Shown one piece after another: positions 4,901-59,083 of a stretch of 59,083 nucleotides of DNA (position 1 is its first letter; each line of letters opens with the position of its first letter). Made by a program: the position numbers and the translations under genes. Source of the stretch: Candidatus Halobeggiatoa sp. HSG11 (GTDB taxonomy: Bacteria > Pseudomonadota > Gammaproteobacteria > Beggiatoales > Beggiatoaceae); contig JAUCGL010000009.1 in NCBI GenBank assembly GCA_030378105.1, positions 1 to 59,083 on the forward strand. The letters are read 5' to 3'. Below the pieces are notes generated by a model that saw only the letters and a list, made by a program, of their open reading frames with translations, had not been told where the DNA came from and ran no database searches.

Positions 4901-4990
4901 GGTAGTCCTACAAAAAGTAGTGATGATTCCAAAAAAACTGCTAGGTTTCAAAAATCTAGCAGGTTTAACACTACATATTGCAGGACCACC
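4901..4990 (+). repeat. Family-A MITE (IS1-like ends), complete with 8-bp target duplication
   Basis: A 90-bp element begins GGTAGTCCTACAAAAAGTAG and ends CACTACATATTGCAGGACCA plus CC, giving imperfect terminal inverted repeats of about 22 bp. The centre is a palindrome (CTGCTAGGTTTC, then AAATCTAGCAGG). It is flanked on both sides by ACATCATG (4893-4900 and 4991-4998), an 8-bp target duplication. The ends match those of the IS1-family element at 58775, which is the likely source of transposase. Confidence 0.85.
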
Positions 4991-9642: not shown

Positions 9643-9823
9643 GGTATTCCTAAATAAAGTAGTGATAACTCCAAAAAAACCTGCTATAGACTTCATAAAA
9701 ATACATTCGTGTGAAACCTGCGAGGTTTTGAAAACCTCGTAAGTTTTTAGTGAAATTATTTATCTGAAAAACTATAGCTATAAAAGATATAGCAGACTTA
9801 AAACTACATATTGCAGAACTACT
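9643..9823 (+). repeat. Family-A MITE interrupted by a second palindromic repeat
   Basis: The left end (GGTATTCCTAAATAAAGTAG) and the right end (AAACTACATATTGCAGAACT) match the family-A MITE. The usual centre is split: the CTGCTATAGACTTCA half is separated from TATAGCAGACTTA by about 85 extra bases. These contain the palindrome AAACCTGCGAGGTTTT with AAAACCTCGTAAGTTT (9713-9770), a repeat found again at 40811. The target duplication is no longer clear. Confidence 0.65.
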
Positions 9824-17718: not shown

Positions 17719-18300
17719 ATGTCAGATAAAATTTATAAAGTGATTCTGCTCGGAAAGATTGCGGATGGATATGATATAGAAATAGCCCATGAAAAGTTGG
17801 CACTTGTTTTTGATATCGATCTTAAAAAGATTCCCAAGTTATTAAAAAAGCCTACTGTTATAAGAAAAGAATTAACTCATAGCGTTGCAGTCCGCTATAA
17901 AAATGGGCTTGATAAAATAGGAGTTTTATGTAAAGTTCATCCTCCACTTGAAACCGGTTATGTTGATTCAAGTCCAACCGCTCCTGAAGAAATTCCTGAG
18001 TCAATTGAGATAAAATCCGAAGAACCTGAAGGGCTAACCGAGCTTAAGCCTGAGGAATCTGAAGAATTAGAGAAAGTTGAACAAGATGAGCAACAGCCAG
18101 TTGAAGAGATAATAGAATTTGCTCCTACTGAAATAAAACTTGGTGGTACACTGCGAGTTATTGATGTAAGGATGTCATTTGGTTCAATGATGTTGCTAAT
18201 CATTAAAATTGTACTTGCCTCTATTCCAACGATGATTATTTTGGGTGGTATTATATTCTTACTTTATCAGGCTATTACTATGATTATTAGTTTTATATAA
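17719..18300 (+). CDS. Uncharacterised protein: N-terminal small domain, acidic linker, C-terminal membrane helix
   Basis: 193 residues. Residues 1-85 (YKVILLGKIADGYDIEIAHE, then LALVFDID and LLKKPTVIRKEL) form a compact alpha/beta unit that I recall at the N-terminus of several proteobacterial membrane proteins; no function is known to me. Residues about 85-140 are a Glu/Pro-rich linker. The C-terminus carries an amphipathic DVRMSFGSMMLLIIKI segment followed by a membrane helix (about 168-193). This last module is repeated in the next gene, 12 bp downstream, so the two are likely co-transcribed and related by duplication. There is no good ribosome site, because the repeat element runs up to the start. 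Confidence 0.65.
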   Translation: MSDKIYKVILLGKIADGYDIEIAHEKLALVFDIDLKKIPKLLKKPTVIRKELTHSVAVRYKNGLDKIGVLCKVHPPLETGYVDSSPTAPEEIPESIEIKSEEPEGLTELKPEESEELEKVEQDEQQPVEEIIEFAPTEIKLGGTLRVIDVRMSFGSMMLLIIKIVLASIPTMIILGGIIFLLYQAITMIISFI

Positions 18301-58359: not shown

Positions 58360-58774
58360 ATATTAATTGTTGTGGTTGTTTTTGTAATAAATAGCTATAA
58401 AATCTTGTACTTGACTATCAAGTTTTTAAAGGATTGACGATTATTGAGGGGTTAAAAATCAAATAATATACCCGGTAGAGATGCGATACTTTGGATTTCA
58501 TTATCACAATAAAAACTGGATAATCGAGTTATATAGAATAATATAGGAGTTGCAAGGTCTTCTTGCAAGTCGGAACGAAAAAACGATGGGTAGTCCTAAA
58601 TAAAGTAGTGAAGATTACAAAAAAAATTACTAGGTTTCAAAATCTACTGAATGTGTTCGACAGACATTAAAAAATCTGTGAGAGCCTTTGGGGGGAAGTT
58701 CCCAAGGGCTACTCGACCCGGCTTTTTTGATTTTGAAAGCTACATATTACATTCCCATTTTATGATAAATATTT
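58360..58774. other. Gap with hairpins and a degenerate family-A repeat
   Basis: No gene is seen. GCAAGGTCTTCTTGC (about 58554-58568) recurs from 33876. A degenerate family-A element starts GGTAGTCCTAAATAAAGTAG at 58589 and ends CTACATATTACATTCCC near 58759, with about 80 extra bases in its centre (GAGCCTTTGGGG with TTCCCAAGGGCT). Confidence 0.5.
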
Positions 58775-59083
58775 GGTAGTCCTCCAGAAAGTAGTGGTGT
58801 ATAATATATTAAAAATATTAAGGGAATTGTCCAACCTGCAACTCAGAAAACGTTATAAAAAATGGGGTAGTCCTCCAATATGTAGTGTTAAACCTGCTTA
58901 GGTATTTGAGACTTAACATGTTTTTTGGAGTCATCACTACTTTTTGGAGGACTACCAAAAATGGAACCATTCACAATGGAAAACAAAAATATGCCTGCAA
59001 AGATTGTTTGAGACAATTTGTTTTGAATCCAAAAAACAAAATTTCTGAGGAAAAGAAAGAGTTAATTGATAAATTATTGTTGG
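58775..59083 (+). mobile_element. IS1-family element, left part, carrying a MITE in its transposase gene
   Basis: The left terminal repeat GGTAGTCCTCCAGAAAGTAG starts at 58775. A transposase frame is open from at least 58822 to the window end. It encodes a zinc-finger N-terminus: CPTCNSENVIKN, interrupted by 33 codons of MITE, then GTIHNGKQKYACKDC and RQFVLNPKNKISEE. The four cysteines of the IS1 InsA-like zinc finger are seen once the insert is ignored. The start codon before CPTC is unclear (GGG AAT TGT after a stop). A downstream ATG inside the MITE (58918) could serve instead. The rest of the transposase lies outside the window. Confidence 0.8.
58866..58956 (-). repeat. Family-A MITE inserted in IS1-family transposase gene
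   Basis: 91 bp with ends GGTAGTCCTCCAATATGTAG and CTACTTTTTGGAGGACTACC. It is flanked by the 8-bp duplication AAAAATGG (58858-58865 and 58957-58964). It lies opposite in orientation to the copy at 4901. Insert plus duplication is 99 bp, so the host frame is kept open. Confidence 0.88.

What the first reader, a model, noticed from the sequence alone, without database searches (positions are those of the whole stretch)
58775..59083. MITE inserted in frame into the transposase of its own parent family
The 91-bp MITE plus 8-bp duplication adds exactly 33 codons with no stop between CPTCNSENVIKN and GTIHNGKQKY. The host element and the MITE share terminal repeats, so a non-autonomous derivative has jumped into a parent-type copy. 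The reading frame survives, but the zinc finger is interrupted, perhaps inactivating it or making a repressor-like product.
Basis: seen in the sequence. Interest (0 to 1): 0.6.

Follow-up and report, generated by a model that had tools for sequence, protein, structure and literature searches.

The report
Small transposon nested in IS1 transposase
A 91-base hitch-hiker transposon has landed inside a copy of the IS1-like element that probably moves it; the landing site is well documented, but this copy has also lost its start codon, so it looks like an ordinary dead element rather than a new regulator.

Summary
A 91-bp MITE (58866-58956) with a perfect 8-bp duplication, AAAAATGG, sits in the InsA zinc-ribbon ORF of an IS1-family element starting at 58775. 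Four copies elsewhere in the genome are uninterrupted at the same site. Over the 220 bp readable, copy C150 differs from the window copy only by the MITE plus duplication and a 10-bp gap.

The window copy lacks AAAAAATAAT, which holds the AT of the ATG. An in-frame TAA lies just upstream, and no ATG/GTG/TTG in frame precedes the zinc ribbon, so the "surviving" frame probably encodes nothing. Read-through is unremarkable: 23 of 23 examined 91-bp copies of this MITE subfamily are open in one phase per strand, so about one coding insertion in three would pass.

An IS-MITE partnership is supported. MITE ends match the IS ends 21/22 and 19/22, and in a Thiomargarita genome one MITE end matches the local, different IS end 22/22. 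The MITE interior does not match the IS.

The contig ends in a collapsed repeat, so the rest of this copy is unreadable. Verdict: a recent nested insertion, new member of a known kind, low interest.

The parts
58775..59083 (+). left part of an IS1-family element (interrupted, start codon missing), running off the contig end
   Evidence: Left end identical to those of C150 and C153; the uninterrupted C293 homologue hits PF03811 over its cut-off and NCBIfam IS1 below its whole-protein cut-off
58775..58796 (+). left terminal repeat of the IS, GGTAGTCCTCCAGAAAGTAGTG
   Evidence: right ends C315 and C299 carry its complement
58819..58821 (+). in-frame TAA just upstream of the zinc-ribbon frame
   Evidence: codon list
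58823..58824 (+). junction where 10 bp (AAAAAATAAT, including the AT of the ATG) are missing relative to C150
   Evidence: 7 of 7 other left ends compared keep an ATG here
58825..58863 (+). first half of the InsA zinc ribbon, NCPTCNSENVIKN, without a start codon
58858..58865 (.). target-site duplication, copy 1 (AAAAATGG)
58866..58956 (+). 91-bp MITE, identical to at least five other copies in the genome
58866..58887 (+). MITE left terminal repeat GGTAGTCCTCCAATATGTAGTG
58935..58956 (-). MITE right terminal repeat GGTAGTCCTCCAAAAAGTAGTG
58957..58964 (.). target-site duplication, copy 2 (AAAAATGG)
58957..59083 (+). second half of the InsA zinc ribbon; these 127 bp are the exact overlap with the end of contig C150
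   Evidence: 127/127 identical

Best explanation
An IS1-family insertion sequence spread in a genome of the same family as Thiomargarita. A 91-bp MITE with matching ends, moved in trans by that family's transposase, landed in the zinc-ribbon coding region of one IS copy and duplicated 8 bp. That copy also lost 10 bp spanning its start codon, before or after. It is a dead nested copy; the open frame through the MITE is a one-in-three coincidence and is not selected. Shown: insertion, duplication, empty sites, missing start codon, copy family. Inferred: trans-mobilisation, lack of product, neutrality. Unknown: order of events.
For: Perfect 8-bp duplication and four empty sites. Window copy equals C150 apart from MITE+TSD and a 10-bp gap over the 220 bp available. 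No in-frame ATG/GTG/TTG between the upstream TAA and a GTG at 58885 inside the MITE. At least six identical MITE copies including this one (40 of 200 candidates scored). 54 pattern matches in the genome, 0 for the control pattern. Two further MITEs in one gene on C5 whose paralogue C41 lacks both. Terminal repeats co-vary with the IS: Thiomargarita IS and one MITE end 22/22 (two MITE loci), while the window genome's IS and window-type MITE carry CC there. 23 of 23 examined 91-bp copies of the subfamily are open in one phase per strand. A crude expectation of 0.09-1.0 nested hits makes one unremarkable.
Against: No complete IS copy was read in this genome, so an active transposase source is inferred from fragments and contig ends. 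None of 12 right-hand ends examined is followed by AAATATTT, the expected partner of this copy's left flank (the search behind it scored 40 of 146 candidates), so the IS may be truncated. MITE-IS similarity is confined to about the terminal 22-32 bases, so the MITE is not shown to be a deletion product. Other MITE subfamilies in the same genome have ends that do not match this IS as well: 59 of 120 examined ends are of the GGAGG (CC) type. In relative G001 the MITE and IS ends match only 19/22.
Confidence: 0.88

Rival explanations
1. The interrupted ORF makes a modified InsA-like protein that represses IS movement.
For: 33 codons without a stop; a GTG-started frame runs from inside the MITE to the contig end.
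Against: Start codon missing and stop just upstream. The first in-frame start lies inside the MITE and yields half a zinc ribbon. The MITE folds as a strong RNA hairpin (-36.4 kcal/mol, z -5.68). PF03811 below its cut-off.
Confidence: 0.03
2. The MITE is moved by another IS1-family element and only happens to share ends with this one.
For: The MITE left repeat is 19/22 to this IS; another IS1-like element with GGTAGTCCC ends exists at C288; other MITE subfamilies in the genome carry other ends.
Against: The CC/GA positions co-vary between IS and MITE in two genomes, and the MITE right repeat is 21/22.
Confidence: 0.12
3. Assembly artefact: two repeat contigs wrongly joined.
For: The contig ends in a collapsed repeat with a 127-bp exact overlap to C150.
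Against: Perfect duplication on both sides of exactly the 91-bp unit; the same anatomy, exact 8-bp duplications included, at 30 other examined MITE copies.
Confidence: 0.03

Closest known systems
IS1 family insertion sequences (InsA/InsB')
   Same: InsA-type zinc ribbon; IS1-type DDE fragment beside a matching right end at C315; promoter-like TATAAT next to the left repeat (seen in the sequence)
   Different: Ends and sequence of its own; no intact copy could be read in this genome
Prokaryotic MITEs (review PMC10969869, passages read)
   Same: Short, no transposase, terminal repeats, duplications, many near-identical copies; the review says in-frame fusions by intragenic MITE ORFs are not unusual
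   Different: Interior is palindrome-like and does not match the IS
Thiomargarita nelsonii hupL MITE (PMC4853749, passages read)
   Same: Bacterium related to the window's genome, with abundant MITEs; one of the top hits of its MITE lies within a putative YhgA transposase
   Different: 10-bp direct repeats, about 205 bp long; no parent IS identified there
Rickettsia palindromic elements (as described in PMC10969869, passages read)
   Same: Repeat read through in frame
   Different: RPEs are reported often in frame in genes; here 1 of 60 examined copies has at least 60 open codons on both sides, in a gene copy that carries two MITEs

Membership tests
IS1 family | InsA N-terminal zinc ribbon | tested here: met
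   Uninterrupted C293 copy: PF03811 28.3 bits, cut-off 26.1; NF050000 58.3 bits, cut-off 28; NF033558 73.3 bits on the fragment, below its whole-protein cut-off of 100. The interrupted window frame scores 20.3 bits, below the PF03811 cut-off
IS1 family | IS1-type DDE C-terminal part | tested here: inconclusive
   PF03400 at C315 (35 bits, cut-off 24.1) beside a right end complementary to the left end here, not linked to this copy
IS1 family | -1 frameshift between InsA and InsB' (recalled as typical) | tested here: inconclusive
   Downstream frame in -1 in L098, L105, L109; in +1 in L099 and the start of L110, copies that look decayed; not readable in the window
IS1 family | 8-9 bp target duplication made by the IS itself (size recalled, from no call) | tested here: inconclusive
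   No IS copy with both ends and matching flanks read; best pair is C150/C315, AATTTATG against AAGTTATG, 7/8, not linked
MITE | Short, no transposase, terminal inverted repeats, duplication, many copies | tested here: met
MITE of this IS | Shares terminal repeats with the IS | tested here: met
   21/22 (right) and 19/22 (left); co-variation in Thiomargarita
MITE of this IS | Mobilised in trans by the IS transposase | not testable with these tools
   needs a transposition assay
Rickettsia-palindromic-element-like coding insert | Regular in-frame residence in genes | tested here: not met
   1 of 60 examined copies with at least 60 open codons on both sides

The most novel reading that the evidence does not exclude
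MITEs of this IS1 family preferentially hit or abut their own parent element (nested here; a MITE ending 7-8 bp before an IS left end in two genomes), so that the parasite of the parasite limits its host element.
Probability: 0.06. Interest if true: 0.5.

Novelty: new member of a known kind. Interest (0 to 1): 0.15.

Why it matters
It documents an IS1-MITE pair in the family that includes Thiomargarita, with near-identical recent copies, empty sites, and end repeats that co-vary between IS and MITE in two genomes. It also shows why an open frame through an insertion should not be read as a preserved protein before the start codon is checked.

Tried and rejected
Looked for the right side of this IS copy through its predicted junction GGACTACC+AAATATTT. 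Three places match it: the window's own left end, a MITE on C300, and C316, whose end is of a different type. The question stays open.

Tested whether the outward GGAGG in the MITE repeats supplies ribosome-binding sites: 3 of 120 MITE ends have an ORF of at least 60 codons starting within 14 bases, and 1 of those 3 carries GGAGG. Rejected.

Tested a Rickettsia-palindromic-element-like role: not supported.

Considered that the 33-codon length is selected. The 90-bp subfamilies plus 8 bp would shift the frame, and the 90-bp copy that reads through (C5) does so together with a one-base difference in an A run between C5 and C41. Rejected.

One search listed no InsA frames because of a wrong pattern; redone on 10 of its loci. 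An identity check to C150 was off by one; redone.

Full report
The window is the whole of contig C326 of a 5.2-Mb, 326-contig genome. G012, placed in the same family, holds the same contig sequence as a named record of Thiomargarita sp. RS_1_20. That the window genome belongs to the Beggiatoaceae is an inference.

Observation. Uninterrupted copies lie on C150, C153, C293 and C104. Against the 220 bp of C150 available, the window copy is identical for its first 49 bases, lacks AAAAAATAAT, is identical up to the MITE, and is identical for the 127 bases after it. Those 127 bases are an exact end overlap with C150. Three right-end contigs (C299, C131, C308) also stop at one shared point 127 bp from the element's end. 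This suggests an assembly that collapsed the repeat with words of 127 bases (inference; no reads are held).

What it is. The uninterrupted ORF is an IS1-family InsA: PF03811 28.3 bits against a cut-off of 26.1. The best NCBIfam hit is the IS1 transposase at 73.3 bits, below its cut-off of 100, which is set for a whole protein. An IS1-type DDE fragment and a right end complementary to the left end lie at C315. The MITE pattern has 54 matches in the genome and 0 for the control pattern. I examined 60 copies in fetched loci, not all copies in the genome: 31 of 60 have an exact 8-bp duplication and 35 of 60 at least 7/8, against 0.1 of 60 in the shifted control. At least six copies, this one included, are identical (which scored 40 of 200 candidates), so some movement is recent. 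Two more MITEs lie in one gene copy on C5, and the paralogue on C41 lacks both.

Parentage. BLAST similarity between MITE and IS is confined to about the terminal 22-32 bases. The right MITE repeat is 21/22 to the IS end and the left 19/22. In Thiomargarita the IS end GGTAGTCCTGAACAAAGTAGTG is identical to one end of its MITEs in the two loci that matched my pattern (L118, L240), while differing from the window genome at the CC positions. Against this: of the 15 loci from five relatives given to that script, 4 matched the pattern (two of G012, two of G001), so the other 11 were not read; in G001 the match is only 19/22; and in the window genome only 59 of 120 examined MITE ends are of the CC type. 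I take this as fair evidence for a partnership, not for origin by internal deletion.

Why the frame matters little. 7 of 7 other left ends that I compared keep an ATG before the zinc ribbon; the window copy does not. Its frame reads TAA GGG AAT TGT, and the first ATG/GTG/TTG in frame is the GTG at 58885 inside the MITE. The 23 examined copies of the window's subfamily that span 91 bp are all open in exactly one phase on each strand, edge codons aside, so about one in three insertions into coding DNA would read through. The zinc-ribbon match drops to 20.3 bits, first half only, and the MITE folds as a strong RNA hairpin. A functional repressor-like product is therefore unlikely.

Is the nesting surprising? 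With 60 MITEs (a lower bound) and 10-20 IS copies of 780 bp, a crude estimate gives 0.09-0.18 hits if insertion is uniform and 0.5-1.0 if only 18% of the genome is tolerant. The copy number is my rough guess from the ends seen; the one near-full copy measured, in Thiomargarita, is 824 bp. The 18% is the intergenic share reported for Thiomargarita nelsonii in PMC4853749 (passages read). That paper also reports a top MITE hit inside a putative transposase gene.

Limits. None of 12 right-hand ends examined carries AAATATTT, the partner expected from this copy's left flank; at least two of the 12 (C88, C191) look like MITE rather than IS ends. The search that listed them scored 40 of 146 candidates. 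The closest left-right pair is C150 and C315 at 7/8. Completeness of the window copy is therefore unknown, as is the order of the 10-bp deletion and the MITE insertion. Literature was searched with six queries. No title or abstract start shown there described an IS1-family MITE in these bacteria. Two papers were read in passages, the others seen only as listings. I make no claim that nested MITEs are unreported.

Noticed in passing
window 4901-4990: Another MITE of the family with its own 8-bp duplication ACATCATG on both sides.
   Followed up: partly
window 9643-9823: Degenerate MITE whose two ends lie about 90 bp further apart than usual, suggesting an insertion inside it.
   Followed up: no
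window 58589-58627: Fragment resembling a MITE end, starting 186 bp upstream of the IS left end.
   Followed up: no
L012 (G000 C293, about 63936-64040) and L098 (about 710-830): In two genomes a MITE ends 7-8 bp before the left end of an IS1-family copy, as if sharing one target duplication; these were the 2 distinct places found in the loci held.
   Followed up: partly
L022 (G000 C5:17135-17224 and 17773-17863): One gene copy carries two MITEs; the paralogue on C41 (L238) lacks both, and the first MITE is read through in frame.
   Followed up: partly
MITE copies genome-wide (120 ends examined): 59 of 120 MITE ends carry an outward GGAGG, a possible ribosome-binding sequence; no link to downstream genes was found.
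   Followed up: yes
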